Part shown: one piece after another, positions 371-38,185 of the stretch | Position numbering within the stretch: the stretch's first letter is position 1 | Layout of the letters: every line of letters starts with the position of its first letter | From: Lentisphaeria bacterium | GTDB lineage: Bacteria > Verrucomicrobiota > Lentisphaeria > Victivallales > UBA1829 | DNA: 50,314 nucleotides | Direction of reading: 5' to 3' | Assembly: GCA_017456495.1 (NCBI GenBank) | Contig: JAFTJI010000099.1 | Span: 1 to 50,314, forward strand | The notes under the pieces: model-generated | Databases searched by the model: none | The model's input: only the letters and a program-made list of their open reading frames with translations | Told to the model about the DNA's origin: nothing | Position numbers and translations under genes: made by a program

Positions 371-446
371 GCCAATTTAGCTCAGTTGGTAGAGCAGCTC
401 ATTCGTAATGAGCAGGTCATCGGTTCAAGTCCGATAATTGGCTCCA
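371..446 (+). tRNA. tRNA-Thr, anticodon CGU
   Basis: This is a complete 76-nt cloverleaf with an encoded CCA end. The acceptor stem is GCCAATT (371-377) with AATTGGC (436-442), followed by T and CCA. The anticodon stem-loop is GCTCA-TTCGTAA-TGAGC, giving anticodon CGT, which reads ACG. The T arm contains GGTTCAAGTCC. The 3' part of the gene is the phage attachment site and is duplicated at 8071. It is not an amber suppressor. Confidence 0.95.
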
Positions 447-461
447 TTTTTTTGCCTTTTT
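395..461 (+). repeat. attL: 67-bp attachment repeat overlapping tRNA-Thr
   Basis: It is identical base for base to 8071-8137. It starts inside the tRNA-Thr D arm/anticodon stem region (CAGCTCATTCG) and ends in the T-rich stretch after the gene. This copy completes a functional tRNA, as is usual for tyrosine recombinases that integrate into tRNA 3' ends. Confidence 0.9.
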
Positions 462-536
462 CAAAACCTAACTTGTTTATAATCAACAATTTACAACTTT
501 TTCGCTTTTGCTTTTCCAAAAATCAAAAAAATGCCT

Positions 537-663
537 AAAATGCACGCAAAATGCAAAAACGACGCACGGATTACGGAAAAATTACGGAAAATTACGGAAA
601 ATTACGGAAAACAAAAAAGTTAATGATTAAAATTACGGAAAATTACGGAAAAAATTACGGAAA
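537..663 (+). repeat. ATTACGGAAA repeat cluster, left end of prophage (candidate integrase arm sites)
   Basis: Seven copies of ATTACGG followed by A-rich sequence start at 570, 581, 591, 601, 632, 642 and 654. They are preceded by a GCAAAATGCAAA block (546-557). The same two motifs, in the same order, occur beside the other att site (7987-8026). Short direct repeats at both ends of an integrated element are typical of arm-type integrase or excisionase binding sites. Replication iterons are an alternative. The small open frame over this stretch is only translated repeat. Confidence 0.6.
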
Positions 664-666
664 AAA

Positions 667-697
667 CAAAAAAAGCAAGTTTTTTATTGCCTTGCTT
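667..697 (-). terminator. Rho-independent terminator of the prophage late operon
   Basis: On the minus strand, AAGCAAG (691-697) pairs with CTTGCTT (673-679) across an 11-nt loop and is followed by TTTTTGTTTTTT. It lies 10 bp beyond the stop codon of the holin-like gene, closing the leftward operon. Confidence 0.75.
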
Positions 698-707
698 TTC
701 CTGATCT

Positions 708-962
708 TTATTTTTTATTGTGATAGTGATATTCTAAAATCTTGATTTTATTATCTATCATTTTTTCAACTTGCTAAGGGGTTAAAATATTAGCTTGCAC
801 TTTTGTTATCTATATTCTGATTGCAGATAAATCTTTCTGCATGTTTTGCAGATTCTATAAAAAGATATTGCCAAAATAGCAAACAATAAAAAGCAATGCC
901 GCGGATATGCCTCCCTTAGTAAGATATTCTATGAACTCTTTTGAATTTTTGATTTTATCCAT
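708..962 (-). CDS. Small membrane protein, holin-like, UAG-recoded
   Basis: This 84-residue frame runs from ATG at 962 to UAA at 708-710 with three in-frame UAGs (after LFL, after IRI and after LTP). Read with UAG as Gln, the protein starts MDKIKNSKEFIEYLTKGG. One hydrophobic segment follows (SAALLFIVCYFGNIFL, residues about 20-36), then a coiled-coil-like charged tail containing NMQKDLSAIRI and QQVEKMIDNKIKILEYHYHN. One membrane span plus a polar C-terminal helix, at the end of a tail gene block and just before a terminator, is typical of phage holins or other lysis accessory proteins. That role is inferred from size, topology and position. AAGG lies 9-10 bp before the ATG. Under the standard code no product longer than about 35 residues could be made. 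Confidence 0.8.
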
Positions 963-976
963 TTTGCTACACCTTG

Positions 977-1891
977 TTATTTATTATTGTTAAGCTAGTC
1001 AAGATATTTTTTTAACTCTATAAAACCTTGCTAATTCCATCTGCAATACTTTTTAGTGTGGATCGCTGATTTAAGAGAACAGCAGATTTTTTTATCAATG
1101 TAAACAGTAAAATCAATATCTTTCATAGCTTGTTTTTTTACTGCTGAATATTGATATACTGTTATCGGATATTTGCCTCTGTATTCTCCTATGTTTGCTG
1201 TAAATAGTTTTTTGTTTATCATTTGAGGTTTTAAGTTATCATAATTCAGAATATCAGATATTTTCAGATACTTTCTTGTATCAAGATCAATAGGGGTATT
1301 ATTATATGTAGGAACTATAGATTTTCCATTTACAGCCCCTAAAAAGGCTGTATTCTAATACATATAAATAAAATCATCTGATAAAAGCTAACTATTACAG
1401 AATGTATATATATCCTGACTCATTACTTGAACATCTTCAAACCTAGATAAATCAATATCGGAATATAGTACATAGATCTTGTTATAGTTTGATACATATT
1501 TTTTTATTGATTCAAGAGAAAAAGTAAAATAATCAAGATTAGTTACTTTCTAAAAAACTATATCAACATTTTTTTCAGCACTAACAGATAATAAACCTTG
1601 ATAATCTTTATTTTCTAATTTTTGCCAAAAATTACGGATAAATAATAAATCATCTGCAGTAACAGATATATTTTTATTTTCGAGGGATTTTCTAAAGTTC
1701 CTGAGCTATGATAACAGCTAATAATTATAAGATAATATATGATGTTCAAGATTGCAGATTTCCCCTAAAAAATCAATTCTATGATCTAATTCCGCGTTAT
1801 CTTGATTATGCCCCTGAATAATCTATTTTCCATAGCTTAAACTTAAAGCTAAATGTTTTTTACAGCATGTTAAACAATCCATATTTTTCAT
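977..1891 (-). CDS. Phage protein of unknown function, UAG-recoded, Cys-rich N-terminus
   Basis: The frame is 304 residues, ATG at 1891 to UAA at 977-979, with eight in-frame UAGs and about ten CAA/CAG codons. The start follows GGAGTGAATAAAA, which also holds the stop of the upstream gene. The N-terminus MKNMDCLTCCKKHLALSLSY has a CxxCC-KH cluster that could bind metal. The middle contains NKIYVLYSDIDLSRFED and LLSDDFIYMYQNTAFLG. The SDDF stretch loosely recalls glycosyltransferase-like phage proteins, but I cannot confirm a family. The only standard-code remnant of useful length is 63 residues near the C-terminus (1031-1222), so conventional gene calling would fragment this gene. It sits between the Cys/Trp-rich gene and the holin-like gene, in the same transcription unit. 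Confidence 0.8.
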
Positions 1892-1893
1892 TT

Positions 1894-3432
1894 TTATTCA
1901 CTCCATATATACTCAAGTCCTATAATATTTACTGTATCAGTTTCCATAAAGGTATCTATATTATCCCCGCCGTTTACCTGTCCATCTATAACCCAATTTC
2001 CCTATAACCAACCGTCATTATTACAAGTAGGTTTTGATCTTACATTATATAATGAATAGTGTGTATGTAATGGGAAATAATAAGTTTCCCCGAAATTCAG
2101 GGAAATCTAATACACTGATTCTGTAATATTGTTAATATTATTATTGTTTGGTTTCCAGTTCCACTTATTATTTTTATCAATAATTTTGAACTTTATTCCG
2201 ATTGCTTTTTCAGGTGTTTTTTCAGTTTTTTCAATGTAAAACTAACAAGCTCTGAAAATCCAACTCCCCAAAGTTACAGAACCGTAATAGTTATCATGCT
2301 TTCCGGATTGCCATTCTGCTTTCATACATAAACTATTAGAGTTCTAACAGATATTCTAGCTCCATCCTGTCCCCTTACGCTAATAATATAAATACTGCAT
2401 ATATCCATTATTTATTATATATGTAGGGTAAACCCCATAAAGGGATCTGTCTGCAACATGTTCCCTGATAAAAGCATTGATTTCCGATAATCCTGAATCT
2501 GCATTTAACTGCTACTAACAACTAACTGTAAAATAACCATTTTCATAATGTCCACCAGTTGAAACAAACTTTTCAAGTGTTATTTGATCGTTAGGAGCTG
2601 AATAGTTATAACATTCTACACCGTAATCTATTGGCTGATCTTCATACTTGTACTATTCTGTAATCATTCTTGAACCCTCAGGGCATGTTTCGCAACCTGA
2701 ATTACCGTATGTAGCACAATCAACCCAATAATCAGTATCATTCTCTAAACAATACTTATTATATTCTGTTATGTAACTCCACTTTGTTACGCCTATATTA
2801 GTCCACCAGCATTGCCCCTTGATTCCTAATACTATTTTGTATGATAATGAATACTGATCTAAAAATAAAGGCTTCCAGTAGCCCTATACACAATTACGCC
2901 CCTAACCAGTTAACTACATTCTGCCGTAATACTAATCAATAATCAAAGGATATTTACCGCTTGAATCTTTTTCTATTCCGCATTCTTTATAAAAAATCTA
3001 AGCAAAATCATCATAATTCTAATATGTTCCTGTAAGATTATACACTTGAATCTATACAGCCTCCCAACATGGAAAATACCATTCCTTGCATTCCGTCCAG
3101 TCCTAATTCCACTATTTGCACTATTCCCAATCAGATATATTTTTAACTGTAGCTGTCCCGCATAATCCTTTTTTAGATGATACTTTAATTTGTGTAGGAA
3201 TCGCATATTCCCAAGTTATCTAGCCGTTAGTAACTTGATACACCATAGTTTCAAAATACCAACTGCACTAGTTATAGGGTATCATAGTTTCACAATTCAA
3301 TGATCTATACTTGATTCCGAAAACGCCCCAACCGTTTAATATATCCCCATTACAAGGGCAATTCTAACAAGAGATTATCTAACCTTTATCATTAGAGATT
3401 ATCTAACCGTTTTTATTTTTCCATACTTGCAT
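1894..3432 (-). CDS. Cys/Trp/Tyr-rich phage structural protein, UAG-recoded
   Basis: The 512-residue frame runs from ATG at 3432 to UAA at 1894-1896 with 24 in-frame UAGs against 12 CAA/CAG codons, so two thirds of its glutamines would be UAG. No standard-code frame longer than 80 residues exists here, so it is invisible to ordinary annotation. The start has GGAG 8 bp upstream, in the GGAGTGA that also contains the stop of the previous gene. The protein is unusually rich in Cys, Trp, Tyr and Asn (for example KGQCWWTNIGVTKW and DYWVDCATYGNSGCETCPEG), suggesting a disulphide-stabilised extracellular or virion-tip protein. Near the N-terminus NGQIISNDKGQIISCQN repeats the QIIS motif with UAG at both Q positions. 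Its position next to a tail-fibre-like gene supports a tail or receptor-binding role, which is inference. Confidence 0.82.
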
Positions 3433-3439
3433 AAAAAAA

Positions 3440-5395
3440 TCACTCCTAACAGTTACCTATAGGGATTATTTTCAACTATCCATTCTGAATAGCTAAAACT
3501 CCATCACCTTCAGGAAGATTCAGAGATATTTTTAATTTTCCGTTAACTGATTCAAGTTTCAATGGAGCTGATACTTCTATTTTGTTCTATAAATAATCAG
3601 GCTAATTATCATCTTGATTTATTTTGACTTTATACAATCCCTAAACCCTGAAATCTAAACTTGTATTATTATCAGTTATCTTAACAGTTGAATCTGAACT
3701 TGTAAAATAAGATGGATTGATATTGATAGTCGTTGTTACCCCTATTTCCTATTGATTTTCAGGGTTAGGAACTTCTATAAATCCTATGTTGATACTATTA
3801 TTCTAACTTGATAATTTATCCTGTAAATATGCAGGGAAACAATCATTTTCATTGCTTTTCACTGTATAAGTATCTAAAAAATCAGAATCAACTATTCCCC
3901 ATGATACACCGCCTTTTGCAGTTCCAGTTAGTACATATTTGCTGTTTTCCGCTGTAGCCTATGGAGGGGTTGAAACATTAGGGATTCCGTTAGAATAATC
4001 CCATAACATTACAGCTTGCAAGGCGTTTTCCGATTTTCCCCCATTCCATAAAGATAAATTTCCGTTTTGTTTCTGAAAAACAAAATTGCCTGTATCACTT
4101 GATACTTGCTAATCAGCTTTCCATTTCACTTCTTTACCCTCTAAACCCTAACTGATCTATACATGATTAGCTAAACTTCCTATAACTTTAACTTGCTAAT
4201 CATCCTATGTTTTCCACATTAAACTACCGCTTGTATTCAGCAATTTTTGTTTTTTGCTTTTATCGTAACCGTTTATTTTATGGTACATGAAATAAGGCTT
4301 GATTTTAGTTGTAATTACGCCCTAATTATCAGTTGTTTCCTGTTTTCCCCCTATTAAAGATAAATTAGGGTAATCATCATCCCCCATAGCACTATGAAAC
4401 TAAAATTTATTCCCTAAATAATCGGGCTGATCTTGCTATGTTACTTTTACTTTATATGTATCAGAATTAGCATAAATAAGAGAATCTATATATTGTTCAA
4501 TCCATAAACCGCCCCCATTATCATATCTGATAGAACCTATTCTGTAATTATAGATTTTATTTTCTTTATCGTAAAAAGCAAGATCATTTTCAGTGATTAT
4601 TACAGCAGATTTTTCTTTTTCATTTACTGAACAATAGATAGAACTATCTGCAGATACAGATATATTAGTATCTGCTGTATAGATTATATCATCACCGATT
4701 TTTACAGCTCCCTGCATAACGAAAAATGAAAAATCTGAAAGAATCCAGTTATTTTTTACTGATCCATTATCAATACTTGTTTTTGCGAAAATTGCAAAAG
4801 GAGTTTTCAGCCCTGCATAACTTACTACAAAGTTACCTAATATTTCATTAGTTACTGTATATTGTTTATGTTCATTTTCAGCAGTAACTTTAACTGTTCC
4901 TAACGGGATTGAAAATACCCCTCTTGAACATGGTACATTATTAGTTAGTGAATCAGATTTTACAAAGTAAATATAAGGAGTATAAACAGGGTTTAATGAA
5001 TCCCCATTAAACAAAGGATTATATACCATTAACAATATAACATGATATTCCCCCTAATCAGAAAGTTTATCAAGAGATATTTTTTGATCTTGAATATAAC
5101 ATCTGTTTTGTGCCTAATCGTTTATTTGTATTCTTCCGTTTTGAACAGATAAAAAATCAGAATCATTCTCTGTAATAACAGATAACTTAAAAGGATATTT
5201 GATTTTTTGACTGCCGTTTTTTCCTGTTCCATTGTTAATACATGATATAGTGATTCCGCTTGTATTCTGATTGATCTTTATAGATTGATTATCACCGCTT
5301 AAACGCTGAGTTTTCAAATAATCTATAATCTGATTGATTGTTTTTACAGCGGAATCCTTAAAGGGCTGTCCTGATTGTAATTTAGTAGGTATCAT
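3440..5395 (-). CDS. Tail-fibre/baseplate-like phage protein, UAG-recoded
   Basis: The 651-residue frame runs from ATG at 5395 to UGA at 3440-3442 with 18 in-frame UAGs. Standard-code reading would split it into pieces of 93 (5114-5395) and 199 residues (4436-5035) plus debris. The N-terminus (MIPTKLQSGQPFKDSAVKTI, then NQIIDYLKTQ and NTSGITIS) resembles the start of many gut-phage fibre or hinge proteins. The rest is beta-rich. Two internal modules align: YKVKVTQQDQPDYLGNK (around 4410-4455) and YKVKINQDDNQPDYLQNK (around 3580-3640). The Gln before PDYL is CAG in the first and UAG in the second, direct evidence that UAG means Gln. It starts 7 bp after the stop of the previous gene, and its UGA stop lies inside the next gene's GGAGTGA. 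The fibre role is inferred from architecture and position. Confidence 0.85.
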
Positions 5396-5401
5396 ATATT
5401 A

Positions 5402-6166
5402 TCATTCTCCATATAAATCTTTATCCCAACCGTTAGAGTCACCGCTTTTTGTATAAACATTTTGTACTATCCAATGTTTTCCATCGTAACTAATAGAACT
5501 CTAATCATGTTTCCAGTTTCCAACATTCAAACCGAAAGTATTATCAGGTGATTTTATTGTATTGATACTTTTTTCTATTGCATTCCCTGCTGAATTAGCT
5601 GTGTTATATTTTGCTGTTTCAGTAACTACAAAAACAGCAAAATCATAATATTCTACACCTTGTTTTGTAGGTTTTTGCAATATTCCCCAATATTCCCCAT
5701 TTTCAGCCTGCTAAAGGGGTAATTCCCCTATTGATTTAATCCATGCGTATTTCCCCCTATCAGATACAGGAATAATTGTATCTTTAGCAGTAGTAGCCCA
5801 TGCAGGGAGTGTTACTTTCCCTAAACCTATTAAATAATGATTCCACATAGTCAAATAGTTAGGTAAACCCTATAAAGGTAACTGTATATTCCTAACTGAT
5901 AATGTAGCAGATTTTTTTCCGGTTACTGTATCTGTTCCAACATCATACTAATAACTATAAACTAAATCAACCTGCCATATATTAGCGTCCTTTTGAGATT
6001 TACTAATACTTGTTAAATATCCTTTATACTCTTGATAATAGTTTCCAATAACAAGAGAATTGATTTTAGAATCAATCTATGTTTCATTTCCGTATAAAGT
6101 TACATTGCAAACATTTTCTGTTTGATTTTTTGAAATATTGATACCTTGAAAAGCTGTATTTATCAT
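5402..6166 (-). CDS. Phage tail-associated protein, UAG-recoded
   Basis: The 254-residue frame starts at ATG 6166, overlapping the UGA of the preceding gene (ATGA), and ends at UGA 5402-5404. It has five in-frame UAGs (after YGNET, VYSY, NIQLP-L, GELPL and WKHD) against about ten CAA/CAG. The N-terminal part (MINTAFQGINISKNQTENVC) and later stretches such as SDRGKYAWIKSIGELPLQQ and SYDGKHWIVQNVYTKSGD look like a beta-rich virion protein; I do not recognise the family. ATGA coupling to the coiled-coil gene and 6-bp spacing to the fibre-like gene put it in the tail module. Confidence 0.8.
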
Positions 6167-7029
6167 ATCAACCCCGCTCCTACAATAATAGTTTTCATTT
6201 GAGATAGAATATTAGCTGTTTTAGCTGAATAATCTTTAATTTGAGTGTTTATTTTTGCTATATCCGTAAATACACCCCCACTTGCAAAACCGCCTCTAGC
6301 CGTTAAAGAATTAGTTTTTTCAGTATAATCTATTTTCAGCTGTGGCATATTATCAAGTTTGTTTTGCAGATTGTATAAAGTTTCAATTTTTTTCCTTTGC
6401 TCATCATTCAAAGTTACACCATATTGATTTTCATACTGAGCAATTTTCTTTTCTATATCTGCTGTTTTCCCTAATCCTTGTTTATGGTATATTTGCCATA
6501 AAATTTCCTGAGCTTCATTAGTGAATGCTGATTGTATCTGTACCCCTGCAAGTTCTTTCTTTTTTTGCATGATAATACTTATCTAACCCTAATCTATATT
6601 CAGCCCTTGTTTTTTAAGATCGTTAATGATTCTCAATCTTTCTATCTACTCTTTGCTTGCAGTCGCTTGTAATCTTGCAAGCTCTAACTAATTATCTAAA
6701 TCTTGCTTAATGTTTTTGTATTCTTTTTTACTCTGTAAATCCTTTAAGATACCTTTTTTAGCTAAAAGATTTTTAATCTAACTCTAATCTATATTCAACC
6801 CTTGTTTTTTAAGATCGAAAACTATTTTCTGATATTCAGCCTAATCTATTTTATCTTGTAAAAGTAACTGTTCTATAGTGATCTGATTCTATAAAGTATT
6901 ATTCTGATCTTGATAATATTTTTCTGATCTTTTTTTCAGCTTATCTATTTTCTGCTGAATTTTCAACTGTTCAAACTGAGCCTGAGCAATATTATACTAC
7001 ATTCTAACATTCAAAAACGCCCTAAACAT
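6163..7029 (-). CDS. Coiled-coil phage protein (tape-measure or internal virion protein-like), UAG-recoded
   Basis: The 288-residue frame runs from ATG at 7029 to UGA at 6163-6165 with nine in-frame UAGs. Only its last 135 residues are open under the standard code. It is almost entirely charged alpha-helix and coiled coil, with an internal repeat: DLKKQGLNIDQSQIKN and DLKKQGLNIDQGQISI, where both Q residues after NID and before I are UAG in each copy. Other UAGs fall at heptad-compatible surface positions (KIDQAEYQ, DNQLELARLQ, SKEQIERL). The C-terminus has a Gly-rich patch (RGGFASGGVF) and ends KTIIVGAGLI. Composition and position upstream of tail genes suggest a tape-measure fragment or internal/tail-tip coil. 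At 288 residues it is short for a tape measure and its N-terminus may be affected by the deletion that joined it to the integrase gene. Confidence 0.8.
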
Positions 7030-7092
7030 ATTCAAGCCTGTATTTTTCTTTTGTATCTTTTTGTTTTTGCTTTTTTAGAATCGTATCTTGTT

Positions 7093-7935
7093 TCAGTTAT
7101 ATAACCATTCATAATCAAGTATCGGCAATATAACATCATTGCCGGTTTTGTTTTGTTTCAGTTTTATCATTTTTGAATTAAAATCTATTTCGTTCCATTC
7201 AAGATTACAAAGATCACCTAATCTAAGCCCTGTATAGAATGCTAAACGGAATAAAGGAATAATTAAGCCACTTGTATCTTTATCTTTGCTACTAAGAATT
7301 AACTTTATTTCCTCTTCCGTGAAAATATCTCTTGTATTTTTTTCATGTTTAACTTTATCAACTGTAGTAAATGGGTTAATGGTGAAACTGCTATTCCTTA
7401 AAACAGAATCAAAAATCACTGAACAAAACATAATGATTCTATTAACAGAATGGGACGAAAGATTAGAGATAGTTTGTTTTTGTTTTATAATTTTGCCGTT
7501 CCTGATATATTCTGATTGATTATTATATCTTCCGTGTTCCTTGATATAATCAACATAACCGATAATATGATCTTCCGTTATCTCTGAGATATATTTAACT
7601 TTATCATTCTCTAAAAATGAACAAAAATCGAACCAATAAGCAAGATACTGTTTTTTTGTTTTCTCTGCAATGTTTTTTCTATTGCCTTTATTCAAGGCAA
7701 TATTTACCGCTGTCCTAATCTCTATATTCTCCGATCCTTTAATTTCGGTGATTCTGTTCCGGTGATACTCAATCGGATTAACAGCTTCATTTTCGTTTTT
7801 TAATTCTTCTTTTCTTTTTTGCTCAAACGCCTTTGCCTCTCTTTCTGTGGTACATCCTTCACATGTTCCGTAAAATCTTTTGCGATTAACCATAAATTCA
7901 TAATAGAATACATTTTTTTTCTTTTTGATTGCCAT
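7093..7935 (-). pseudogene. Truncated tyrosine integrase (XerD/lambda-Int type)
   Basis: The 280-residue frame starts at ATG 7935 with AAGGAGG eight bases upstream and ends at UGA. An arm-binding-like N-terminal domain (about residues 1-45) is followed by a SAM-like core-binding domain (about 90-200). The start of the catalytic domain is present, with the active-site Arg in FYTGLRLGDLCNLEW and the beta-hairpin Lys in KQNKTGNDVI. The chain stops right after ILDYEWLYN, so the HxxR box, the His/Trp and the nucleophilic Tyr are missing. It should not be able to recombine DNA. All six glutamines are CAA/CAG and no UAG is present, unlike the neighbouring late genes. The end probably marks the junction of an internal deletion in the prophage. 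Its position beside the right attachment repeat is normal for an integrase. Confidence 0.85.
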
Positions 7936-7969
7936 TTTTTAGCCTCCTTAAAGTGTTGATTTCAGGTAA

Positions 7970-7998
7970 AATATACACCCTCAGAATGCAAAATGCAA
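7970..7998 (-). promoter_or_regulatory. Promoter of the integrase gene
   Basis: On the minus strand a TTGCAT -35 (7993-7998) and TATATT -10 (7970-7975) are 17 bp apart and 35 bp upstream of the integrase ATG. The -35 lies inside the GCAAAATGCAAA block that is shared with the left end of the element, so integrase or a partner protein binding there could autoregulate. After the deletion this promoter may also read into the recoded genes. Confidence 0.55.
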
Positions 7999-8026
7999 AC
8001 AAAAATTACGGAAAAATTACGGAAAA
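7987..8026 (+). repeat. ATTACGGAAA repeats, right end of prophage (candidate integrase arm sites)
   Basis: Two copies of ATTACGGAAAA start at 8005 and 8016 and are preceded by GCAAAATGCAAA. This is the same composite as at 546-663. The two clusters lie just inside the two attachment repeats, as expected for P and P' arms. Confidence 0.6.
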
Positions 8027-8070
8027 TCTTTCATTTTTTAAGCGTTTTGAGTTCAAAATAGCCGTTTTTT

Positions 8071-8137
8071 CAGCTCATTCGTAATGAGCAGGTCATCGGT
8101 TCAAGTCCGATAATTGGCTCCATTTTTTTGCCTTTTT
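8071..8137 (+). repeat. attR: 67-bp attachment repeat (displaced tRNA-Thr 3' half)
   Basis: This is a perfect copy of 395-461 containing the anticodon arm, T arm, acceptor 3' strand and trailing T-run of tRNA-Thr, but no 5' half. It marks the right boundary of the element; host sequence resumes after it. Confidence 0.9.
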
Positions 8138-8337: not shown

Positions 8338-9090
8338 ATGGACAAAACGCAGAAAAAACATTTTACATTGATTGAACTGCTCGTGGTGATCGCCATCATC
8401 GCGATTCTGGCAGGTATGCTGCTGCCGGCTTTGAACAATGCAAGAGAACAGGGACGTGCAAAGGGTTGTTTGAACAATATCAAACAGACCGGAGCGGTTT
8501 GTCTGTTATATGCAAACGATTACGATGATGTTCTTCCCTTCAAGGGGCATACAGATTCCAAGACGGGGATCAATTACGGCGCATATTTTTCAAGCGGTTA
8601 CCATTGGCAGGATGCAATGTATAAGGCATATAATGGAAGTGTAAACAAAAATCTCTCCATGTGTCCGGCAACACTCACAAAATTTAAACCTACAGTCAAT
8701 ACAACCTATGGAATGAATAATTATCTGGCTGCCGGGACAATGATACATAGCAGTTATCATGCAAAATTCAATGTTCCGATCCGGAAAGTTTCTCAGTTGA
8801 GAGCAGCCTCTAAAAGTGGACTGATGGTCGAAAACAGAGGTCACGGCGGTTGGGGCGGTAATGAATCAGAAACCGCAACAGATGCAACCCGCACCCACTT
8901 TATCCATAAAGAACGGGCTAATGCTGTTTTTATCGATGGCCATGCAGAATCCAGAACATACTCCGGCATCCCTTCCTATGAATCGACCCTTTACACTGCA
9001 ATGAAAAAAGGGCAGTCTGAACGGCTCAATACTTACTTTCATATAGGCGAAGTTTTCAGTCATACAGCCACAGCTTACCCCGGATTGTAA
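8338..9090 (+). CDS. Prepilin-like secreted protein (H-X9-DG type)
   Basis: The 250-residue protein has a type IV prepilin-type leader: a short basic stretch, then [20 protein letters not shown] and [10 protein letters not shown], with cleavage expected before the Phe and Glu at +5. The globular part contains the CLNNIKQ segment and, near the C-terminus, [12 protein letters not shown], an exact H-X9-DG motif typical of this large family in Lentisphaerae, Planctomycetes and Verrucomicrobia. Its role is unproven. It should be processed by a prepilin peptidase and anchored in or exported across the inner membrane. The gene starts after GGAG, 24 bp upstream of the lyase gene, suggesting a partner role in handling the enzyme or its substrate. 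Confidence 0.88.
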
Positions 9091-35155: not shown

Positions 35156-37470
35156 TCAAATTTGCAGATACTTCCGGTACTCCGATTCCTTCAGATCTAC
35201 AACCTGACCGACAAACGGCTGCAATATCGCCACAATATCCCGATGATCCTCCTCCGAATACTCCTCAATCGAATACCGGATATCAGGATTCTCAGGATCA
35301 AACGTCCCCACATTATCCGTCGCAGATTTGATTTGATTCGGATAAAAAGCAACAACTTCATCACCGTTTTTGGATTGCATTACACCATCATATCCATTAC
35401 GTTCAAGCCAGGAACGAAATTCATGTTCACCATAAAAATCACGCAGCAATCTGTATGGAATTTCAACAGTGAGATCTCTTCTTGAAAAGCCTCGATCCTG
35501 AAAATACAAATGTGTTGCCAAAAGCTGTAAATCTGTATTTGAACCGGGATTGTAAATGCGTTCAGAAAAACCATATTCAATCCATGTATGTCCATTTTCT
35601 TCATGCTTTACAGGATCTGCTTCAATAACAATTTCATCGGAATTTGAACTTTTCCGGATAGAAAATTTTTTGTTGTGATACACATCGATAAACATTCTGG
35701 CATATTTATCAAGCGTGATTTCTCCTGCAAAATCCCCATTTTTATCATAGGTACTCAAAGTAAAATCTTTAAGTAATTCAGGAAATAACTTCACAGCATT
35801 AACAATTTCAACAGAATTTACTTCGTCTCCTAAAACTGGTTTTCCATTCCAATAATACAGACTTTCAGAGAAATAAAATGGATTTTTAATACTCAAATAA
35901 AACGGGTAAACATTCTTTCCATAATATCCAGCTTCTCCTTCACTTGCTTTGCCATTTCCAAAAGTAAAATAAAAGCCACGTCCAAAAAATCCATTATCAC
36001 CACTTCCTGATCCGCGATATTTATCAGAAAAAACAGCTTCACCGGAAGGCTCTGAAAACATATCCCAATTTGTCCCATGATAAACCACCATTGGATCACC
36101 ATTTTCATCCACAACCTTGCTTTTGCCAAACCACTTTTTAAACTGCAAAGTTTCCGTTTGCGGCTTGACTTTTAAGCCAACATCGGCTATATTACGCATG
36201 ACGGAATCAAATGCGTATCTGTTGGGGAATTGCACCCCTTCAGCATTAAGTATTGATTCCGCTTTTTTTTGTGCATAAAGAACACTTGGTATTCCATTTT
36301 TTTCTTTTTCAACAGCATTTTTTGCTAACTTTGAAAATGCATTTGCACGACCTTGCGCTGAAGTCATAATATGAGCATCTATTTTATTTTGCTCTGAACG
36401 ACCATTCAATAAAATCGGCACAACAACAGCATCACCGTTTTTATCTGTCAATTCAAGAATGACTACAACACTTGTATCCGGATGAGTTTCTGAAGTAATT
36501 ACCATCAAAGGATTTTCAAGTTTTTCAGGAATCTGTTTGATCAATTCTCCCAAATCATGATTATGATCCTTCTCTGTTTTCTTTGGTAAATAAATACTCT
36601 CAATATGTTTTGCTGTTGTCATTATCGGCAATTTGGAAAAACCCATGTCAATAAAAATTTGCGGTGTATCACGCATAAAAACAGACCCATTGCCTGAATA
36701 TGTATGATTTAAAACAGCATCAACACTGTTAGAAAATGGAATTTGATAAAAAACTTTACCGTTTTCCTCCATTTTTCCCTGTTCATCAACAGAATACCGG
36801 ATCCCGTTACCTCCGTTTAAGTCCGTTCCCGTCCGTAATTCTCCGTCATTTTCCGTTCCATCACTTGAATTTTCCGGAATCAATGATATACTATGATCGG
36901 TCAACATTCCGGTCGCGGACGCTCCTCTTTGAGCGAATTTACGGCGTTTGTTGACTTTTTTATTGCTGTAAAAAGACTTGAAATCACCCCTGTTTCCAGT
37001 TGATAAGGTATAAACTGTTTTACCAATTTTATACTTATAAACTTTATTACGCCGTTTTTTCCCCTTTTTATTTTTTGTTATTTCAATTGCCGGCGTTTCT
37101 GCTAAGGCTAGGAGAAATTGAAAAATCTCGCTTGACAAAATCAATTAGTTGTTGTATTGTAAGGCTGCGGTCGGCTGATGGATCAACAACCCCAAGACTG
37201 TAATCTTGTGTTTGTCCCACGTACAGAGACCGCTTTTTTATGCTTATATCCTTGAAATACGCCCTGTTATCTGCTGCAGTATCATCAAGTTTGATTGCCG
37301 CTATATAATGTTCTCCATTAATATCTAAAAGCGCAGCATAAACAAACTGCCCCTTAAGATCTTTGCGTTTTTCCTTATGGTAAAATCAGTTTCCCTGAAA
37401 ATCTGTCCCTTTTGCGTGTCCCGCCATAGCTCTTTGAGCGGCGGCGGAAGGGTAAATTGTCACGACACGG
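35156..37470 (-). pseudogene. Decayed phage polyvalent protein with MuF-C-like and ADP-ribosyltransferase-like domains
   Basis: The main frame (35156-37144, up to 662 residues) has no proper start: a UAA precedes it. The preceding ~300 bp encode more of the same protein in another frame (RVVTIYPSAAAQRAMAGHAK; DLKGQFVYAALLDINGEHYI), interrupted by UGA at 37386-37388 where Trp might be expected, and frameshifted at about 37080-37144. The main frame holds an internal region (SVLYAQKKAESILNAEGVQF) like MuF C-terminal domains of phage head proteins. It then has an ART-PolyVal-type domain with VVYHGTNWDMF (about residue 353) and GRGFYFTFG (about 393), and the phage-typical GTFDPENPDIRYSIEE. It looks like a remnant of a mobile element beside tmRNA, a common integration site. 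Domain names are from memory of the families; the disruption is seen directly. Confidence 0.7.
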
Positions 37471-37829: not shown

Positions 37830-38185
37830 TGGTGGAGACGGCGGGAGTCGAACCCGCGTCCTGTGACAGCTTTCCGATGGCATCAACATGCTTTCTCCAT
37901 CTTTATCGTTTTTTCGTCTCGCGGCTGAGCCAATGGATAGGCGGCTTTGCGACTATACTGTCTGAATCTCACTGATTTAACAACAGTCCGATCAAATCAG
38001 CCAGGACTCTGACGACGTCTCAACTTCCCTTAGAGTCCGTCAGGGAGGAGACGTCACTGCAACTTAGGCAGCGAGAGCGTACTCTTCGTTCGCTTGTATT
38101 TTTTGACAGAAGTTTAACGAGGCCAACTGTCATCCTCGGCATGCAGCTGTCGGTCTACTCGTCCAGTCGAAACCATGACGTCCCC
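37830..38185 (-). ncRNA. ssrA: tmRNA (SsrA)
   Basis: On the minus strand the RNA starts GGGGACGTCATGGTTTCGAC at 38185 and ends with the T arm GGTTCGACTCC, CGTCTCCA and CCA at 37830. GGGGACG pairs with CGTCTCC to form the acceptor stem, giving a 356-nt one-piece tmRNA with an encoded CCA. The tag reading frame (38093 down to 38064) encodes ANEEYALAA followed by UAA; one or two residues may precede it. It frees stalled ribosomes and tags products for proteolysis. In a host of an amber-recoded phage it would be a natural opponent of stalled UAG reading. Confidence 0.96.

What the first reader, a model, noticed from the sequence alone, without database searches (positions are those of the whole stretch)
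708..7029. Amber-recoded prophage genes: six consecutive frames readable only with UAG as a sense codon
Reading the minus strand by hand gives six adjacent frames (84, 304, 512, 651, 254 and 288 residues) with 3, 8, 24, 18, 5 and 9 in-frame UAGs, 67 in all. Each ends at UAA or UGA, has a plausible start, and is packed within 15 bp of its neighbour, often with stop/ribosome-site or ATGA overlaps. Conventional annotation sees only scraps here. Code-15 (UAG to Gln) phages are known from gut metagenomes. An integrated copy in a Lentisphaerae-like chromosome that otherwise uses the standard code appears unusual.
Basis: partly seen in the sequence, partly recalled or inferred. Interest (0 to 1): 0.95.

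Follow-up and report, generated by a model that had tools for sequence, protein, structure and literature searches.

The report
Phage relic reading UAG as glutamate
A 7.7-kb stretch in a Lentisphaerota-type bacterial chromosome, likely the remnant of an integrated phage, carries six genes that are open only if the stop codon UAG is read as an amino acid, and alignment with standard-code relatives indicates that this amino acid was likely glutamate rather than the glutamine assumed for other recoded phages, which would be a new viral genetic code.

Summary
In detail: six minus-strand frames (84, 304, 512, 651, 254, 288 codons) hold 67 UAG and no in-frame UAA or UGA. They lie between perfect 67-bp repeats, the 3' part of tRNA-Thr(CGU) and its copy. 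It is a prophage relic: the integrase lacks its C-terminal part, and only the C-terminal 288 codons of the tape-measure gene remain, probably joined by one deletion. The same tail genes stand in the same order in standard-code prophage-like stretches of related genomes. In relatives whose DNA I read, UAG columns (43 of 67 covered) carry Glu 98 and Gln 8 of 268 residues, whereas the same test returns Gln for CAA+CAG and Glu for GAA+GAG. Two UAGs sit where relatives have Glu in 25 of 26 and 31 of 34. A second recoded relic, in a host of another family, agrees (Glu 86, Gln 14 of 380). Both integrases lack UAG; no CUA tRNA was found in either host assembly. Against: protein-database homologues are mixed, CAG columns alone are a tie in the window, and the known-Gln control was uninformative. 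Recoded prophages in standard-code hosts are known; UAG=Glu in a phage was not found in my searches. The tRNA is unseen; no protein evidence exists.

The parts
371..446 (+). host tRNA-Thr(CGU), integration target
   Evidence: ARAGORN; Rfam tRNA
395..461 (+). attL: 3' part of the tRNA plus downstream bases, 67-bp repeat
   Evidence: 100% identical to 8071-8137
578..674 (.). ATTACGGAAA repeats inside the left end; possible integrase arm-type sites (inferred)
   Evidence: family D1
708..962 (-). 84-codon frame, 3 UAG, predicted small membrane protein, perhaps holin-like (inferred)
   Evidence: weak PHROG matches only, best E 0.0048
977..1891 (-). g304: 304 codons, 8 UAG; conserved protein of unknown function
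   Evidence: 22 homologues; L054
1894..3432 (-). g512: 512 codons, 24 UAG
   Evidence: 4 homologues; L054, 22%
3440..5395 (-). g651: 651 codons, 18 UAG; tail-module protein with conserved N-terminal domain
   Evidence: (19 listed, the first being the window's own frame)
5402..6166 (-). g254: 254 codons, 5 UAG; next to tape measure; UAG codons 30 (6077-6079) and 99 (5870-5872) at Glu-conserved columns
6163..7029 (-). C-terminal 288 codons of a tape-measure gene, 9 UAG; codon 128 (6646-6648) at a Glu column
   Evidence: relatives are 583-715 aa
7020..7120 (.). probable deletion junction between integrase and tape measure (limits set by the homology on each side)
7093..7935 (-). tyrosine integrase, 280 aa, no UAG, C-terminal catalytic part missing
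   Evidence: Pfam PF00589 positions 3-73 of 172
8002..8027 (.). ATTACGGAAA repeats inside the right end
8071..8137 (+). attR: copy of the tRNA 3' part

Best explanation
The element at 462-8137 is most likely a prophage relic whose integrase and tape-measure genes were both cut by one internal deletion; its six remaining late genes are open only with UAG as sense, and UAG was most likely read as glutamate, probably by a phage tRNA(CUA) that would have been lost in that deletion. Shown: open frames, att repeats, truncated integrase and tape measure, tail-gene order shared with standard-code prophage-like stretches, no UAG in the integrase, and Glu rather than Gln at UAG columns of relatives, here and in a second recoded relic (G323:C7, about 36.2-54.1 kb). 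Inferred: the tRNA, its charging with Glu, and its role: integration genes free of UAG can be made in a lysogen, while virion genes full of UAG would wait until the suppressor tRNA is expressed. In the present host each relic frame would be expected to stop at its first UAG.
For:: 67 UAG, 0 UAA/UGA; first set of standard-code relatives; 10 of 10 sense classes recovered in the window, UAG gives Glu 20.1, Gln 7.3; raw Glu 31, Gln 2 of 84; UAG v Gln codons p 1e-4, UAG v Glu codons p 0.71; g254 codon 30 Glu in 25 of 26, codon 99 in 31 of 34, tape-measure codon 128 in 9 of 13, no Gln at these three., equal masking, 36 relatives: UAG Glu 28.9, Asp 13.4, Gln 12.3 (Glu top in 1982 of 2000 bootstraps); CAA+CAG gives Gln, GAA+GAG gives Glu. 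Glu stays first with two matrices, without the three best columns, and with one relative per column. Second relic: 45 columns, 380 residues, Glu 22.5, Asp 11.9, Gln 7.1; 8 of 8 sense classes recovered; one column Glu in 18 of 18; of 53 g254 places in 137 genomes only the window's has UAG. Integrase: 26 Glu codons, no UAG; the G323 recombinase: 41, none.
Against: Closest database homologue of g512 (P0020, 74%) has Gln at 11 and Glu at 9 of 21 UAG columns, P0021 six of each of 24; with database homologues g651 alone slightly favours Gln. In one search CAG columns of the window alone are a tie (Gln 5.3, Glu 5.2; raw Glu 37, Gln 14 of 221), so the test is weak on small classes. Per gene Glu is first in 3 of 5 window genes and 4 of 6 G323 genes; three of five g254 UAG columns are not Glu columns. 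With few relatives the G323 set put Asp first and misread its Gln codons as Lys by a hair. Known-Gln control phAss-1 was uninformative. No CUA tRNA and no peptide seen.
Confidence: 0.82

Rival explanations
1. Ordinary code 15: UAG = Gln, as in crAss-like phages; the Glu excess reflects tolerant Glu sites that turned into UAG.
For: Table 15 is the assignment used and validated in two Crassvirales phages (passage of PMC11210395). P0020 has Gln at 11 of 21 UAG columns. phAss-1 Gln codons themselves gave Gln and Glu nearly tied.
Against: Under this code CAG and UAG are synonymous, so relatives should show Gln at UAG columns; they show 8 of 268 and 14 of 380. Columns at least half conserved as Gln in relatives have UAG 0 of 9, those conserved as Glu 4 of 23.
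Confidence: 0.09
2. UAG is decoded ambiguously as Glu and Gln, for example by an imperfectly selective synthetase.
For: UAG columns match both Gln and Glu in P0020 (11 and 9 of 21) while Gln and Glu codons hardly exchange (1 of 38).
Against: Gln is rare at UAG columns in relatives whose DNA I read. The host has a GlnRS.
Confidence: 0.06
3. The frames are decaying pseudogenes and the UAGs are random nonsense mutations.
For: The element is a deleted relic.
Against: Decay would also give UAA and UGA; there are none in 2093 codons against 67 UAG. GAA (79) outnumbers GAG (13), so decay of Glu codons would yield mostly UAA.
Confidence: 0.01
4. The host itself is moving towards UAG as a sense codon and the phage follows it.
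For: UAG ends only 4 of about 165 long host ORFs, and the prfA in this assembly has an in-frame UGA about 20 codons before its end.
Against: No CUA tRNA among the 41 host tRNA genes. In six 20-kb stretches coding density is 0.825-0.942 with the standard code and 0.829-0.942 with UAG sense. UAG does end four ORFs.
Confidence: 0.02

Closest known systems
Code-15 phages (crAss-like phages, phAss-1; UAG = Gln)
   Same: Late genes dense in UAG, standard-code host, tailed-phage genes.
   Different: Here relatives have Glu at UAG columns; no Gln-type tRNA(CUA) found; Lentisphaerota host; integrated relic.
Recoded prophages in standard-code hosts (Borges 2022, known to me through a passage of PMC10746230)
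   Same: Integrated, host standard code, integrase without UAG.
   Different: Codon meaning Glu; relic only; that paper was not readable here.
Eukaryotic nuclear codes with UAG = Glu (Blastocrithidia, listing of PMC12153298; peritrich ciliates, recalled)
   Same: UAG = Glu.
   Different: There UAA is Glu too; here UAA is used only as terminator; a phage, not a nucleus.
Standard-code tail modules in the same bacterial order (L143-L147, L054)
   Same: Tape measure, g254 and g651 N-terminal domain in one order (L143-L147); L054 has g304 and g512 homologues.
   Different: No in-frame UAG in the matched genes; GC 44-59% of the stretches against 27-33% here.

Membership tests
Stop-recoded tailed phage (UAG sense) | Phage genes open only with UAG sense | tested here: met
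Stop-recoded tailed phage (UAG sense) | Host uses the standard code | tested here: met
   RF1 and GlnRS genes, UAG as terminator in 4 of about 165 ORFs
Stop-recoded tailed phage (UAG sense) | Suppressor tRNA(CUA) in the phage genome | tested here: inconclusive
   none in the relic nor in G323:C7, but most of the phage genome is deleted; known recoded phages can lack one (passages of PMC7886860 and PMC10607447)
NCBI code 15 (UAG = Gln) | Gln at UAG columns of standard-code relatives | tested here: not met
   Gln 8 of 268 and 14 of 380; Glu 98 and 86; database homologues mixed
UAG = Glu code | UAG columns not distinguishable from Glu columns | tested here: met
   permutation p 0.71 (window), 0.16 (G323)
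UAG = Glu code | Glu-charged tRNA(CUA) or Glu in peptides | not testable with these tools
   no tRNA found, no proteomics
Prophage | att repeats at a tRNA with an integrase inside | tested here: met
Prophage | Complete, able to excise | tested here: not met
   integrase and tape measure truncated, no head genes between

The most novel reading that the evidence does not exclude
Temperate phages of Lentisphaerota use a viral genetic code not described before, UAG = glutamate, seen in two largely different recoded relics in two host families, with integrases kept free of UAG so that virion genes wait for a glutamate-charged amber tRNA.
Probability: 0.76. Interest if true: 0.92.

Novelty: new variant of a known kind. 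Interest (0 to 1): 0.84.

Why it matters
UAG-recoded phages are annotated with table 15 (Gln). If amber recoding can also mean Glu, the predicted proteins of such phages are wrong at many charged residues, and the assignment should be tested case by case. It would show that amber recoding in phages has more than one tRNA origin (Gln CUG and Glu CUC are each one base from CUA) and would help to ask why phages recode: the amino acid may vary while the use of UAG in late genes stays.

Tried and rejected
Code 15 at face value: rejected. Intact recoded relatives: viral-contig scans with g651 and g304 confirmed none; g254 gave two relatives and the G323 domain one, all without in-frame UAG in the matched part and without tRNA; the phages collection gave no match for g651 or P0024. 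Known-Gln control phAss-1: relatives with any in-frame stop dropped (18 columns, 40 residues: Lys 1.3, Gln 1.2, Glu -0.6), three near-duplicates dropped (88 residues: all residues below zero; its Gln codons gave Gln 15.0, Glu 14.6): uninformative. Lak-A1 was fetched as a control and dropped: 3 of 10 ORFs had a Pfam match. Host without GlnRS: rejected. Empty site in the same genus: G010 has the right flank at 93% but no tRNA beside it; not shown. Codon usage alone did not decide between Gln and Glu. DUF1353 gene of G323 against phages was not pursued. A plasmid search with the prfA stretch found nothing.

Full report
Observation. The six frames exist as described, with 67 UAG and no in-frame UAA or UGA, and end in UAA or UGA. 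UAG is the only stop whose reassignment opens the region: the longest run is 652 codons with UAG sense, 205 otherwise, and at most 261 in 200 shuffles.

Element. Perfect 67-bp repeats lie at 395-461 and 8071-8137; the left one is the 3' part of tRNA-Thr(CGU). The flank from 8187 on matches a same-genus genome, G010 (93% over the stretch), so the contig is chromosomal. The bacterial family holds G012, whose contig C79 has the length (24,894 bp) of MWCA01000079.1, Lentisphaerae bacterium ADurb.Bin242, and is taken to be that record. Repeats of ATTACGGAAA stand inside both ends, as arm-type integrase sites might (inferred).

Relic. The 12 integrase relatives examined are 425-654 aa from stop to stop and go on for 142-363 aa beyond the match, with the catalytic motifs; the window's protein ends at 280 aa (motif names recalled). 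The 288-codon frame aligns with the C-terminus of five tape-measure-like proteins of 583-715 aa. Something between was therefore lost, most simply in one deletion. The order tape measure, g254, g651 N-terminal domain recurs in five standard-code stretches from four genomes of the same order (L143-L147); that these are prophages is inferred from gene content.

Which residue, database homologues. At 50 UAG columns the spectrum fits Glu better than Gln (15.1 v 11.3), and E/(E+Q) is 0.67, against 0.33 at Gln codons and 0.73 at Glu codons. g651 alone slightly favours Gln. The database may itself write UAG as Q: it lists a protein identical to the window's 651-residue frame with Q at all 18 UAG.

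Which residue, DNA read. I then used relatives whose DNA I could read and whose matched parts carry no in-frame UAG. In the first set all ten sense classes tried in the window were named correctly, and UAG came out as Glu (20.1; Gln 7.3; raw Glu 31, Gln 2 of 84). A search of 137 genomes of the order found g254 in 46; of 53 places listed only the window's has UAG. With 34 relatives, codon 30 is Glu in 25 of 26 and codon 99 in 31 of 34, Gln in none; the other three g254 UAG columns are not Glu columns. Ten of the relatives are alike and were down-weighted. The last run masked every tested codon class alike (36 relatives, 43 of 67 UAG columns covered): UAG gives Glu 28.9, Asp 13.4, Gln 12.3 (raw Glu 98, Gln 8 of 268); CAA+CAG gives Gln 27.1, Glu 15.8; GAA+GAG gives Glu; CAG alone is a tie, with raw Glu 37 and Gln 14 of 221. 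Glu stays first with two matrices, without the three best columns, and with one relative per column; by gene it is first in three of five, while g512 (one relative) gives Thr 3.2, Glu 2.6 and g651 (two columns) is flat.

Second relic. A search of 387 genomes of the phylum with g304 gave 7 with a match, two of them with in-frame UAG: the window and G323:C7, in another family of the order. There the 15 frames I took hold 95 UAG and no UAA/UGA in 3706 codons, beside a recombinase (serine type by my reading, no family search) without UAG. I saw no terminase, capsid or tape measure in its translations (by eye). Three of its proteins share a domain that is found in 50 of 137 genomes; among the places listed only these three carry UAG. 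Against 35 of the 37 sequences given, its 45 covered UAG columns give Glu 22.5, Asp 11.9, Gln 7.1 (raw 86, 41, 14 of 380); all eight sense classes tried were named correctly; one column is Glu in 18 of 18. With the first few relatives Asp had come first and Gln codons were called Lys by 13.7 to 13.3. No CUA tRNA was found among its host's 42 tRNA matches. The same host has a g254 place without in-frame stops on C32. The one similarity I found between the relics is about 85 residues of g304 at 40%.

Results against. P0020, the closest homologue of g512, has Gln at 11 and Glu at 9 of 21 UAG columns. If these are real Gln, UAG exchanges with both residues while the two hardly exchange with each other (1 of 38), which no single meaning explains; if they are UAG written as Q, the pattern is synonymous for Glu. 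Its DNA is not held. The phAss-1 control was uninformative.

Mechanism. With UAG = Glu, UAG is the second Glu codon of the relic (GAA 79, UAG 67, GAG 13). The integrase has 26 Glu codons and no UAG; at the late genes' share of 42% the chance is about 7e-7 (my arithmetic). This fits the published idea that recoding holds back late genes (passages of PMC10746230 and PMC11210395). The decoder is inferred: a phage tRNA(CUA), one base from tRNA-Glu(CUC); none is left in either relic. None of the 41 host tRNA genes is CUA (the 42nd match is the attR copy; the assembly is 90.85% complete). The host has GlnRS and an RF1 gene.

Literature. Ten searches; those aimed at UAG with glutamate or glutamic acid and phage, at tRNA-Glu (111), at Codetta with phage (131) and at recoded Lentisphaerae prophages (112, no paper) listed no report of UAG = Glu in a phage by title or abstract. 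I saw listings, and passages of six papers (PMC10746230, PMC10607447, PMC11210395, PMC12386605, PMC7886860, PMC8629427). The library lacks most subscription papers; Borges 2022 is not held.

Noticed in passing
L082/L083 = G323:C7, about 36.2-54.1 kb: Second UAG-recoded phage remnant, in a host of another family of the order, with a recombinase free of UAG; collagen-like repeats have G-UAG-Q-G.
   Followed up: yes
L050 (G000:C200:5207-6274): The host's prfA (RF1) has an in-frame UGA about 20 codons before its end in this assembly; real lesion or assembly error is open.
   Followed up: partly
window 8200-50314 and other G000 stretches: UAG is a rare terminator in this host: 4 of about 165 long ORFs, a few counted twice; same-genus stretches had 3 of 19.
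   Followed up: partly
window 8338-9090: Prepilin-like gene (start of a large family): DNA of its 5' part recurs at over 100 places in the three genomes of the genus.
   Followed up: no
L145 and L146: Nearly identical standard-code tail modules in two species (G015, G016).
   Followed up: no
L189-L195: IMG/VR relatives of a phAss-1 protein carry in-frame UGA (1-9 per contig in the matched parts), suggesting UGA recoding next to UAG recoding in that group.
   Followed up: no
window 35156-37144: A 662-aa ORF in a stretch of lower GC (0.36-0.38) than its surroundings.
   Followed up: no
window 37830-38185: tmRNA gene (Rfam RF00023, 152 bits).
   Followed up: no
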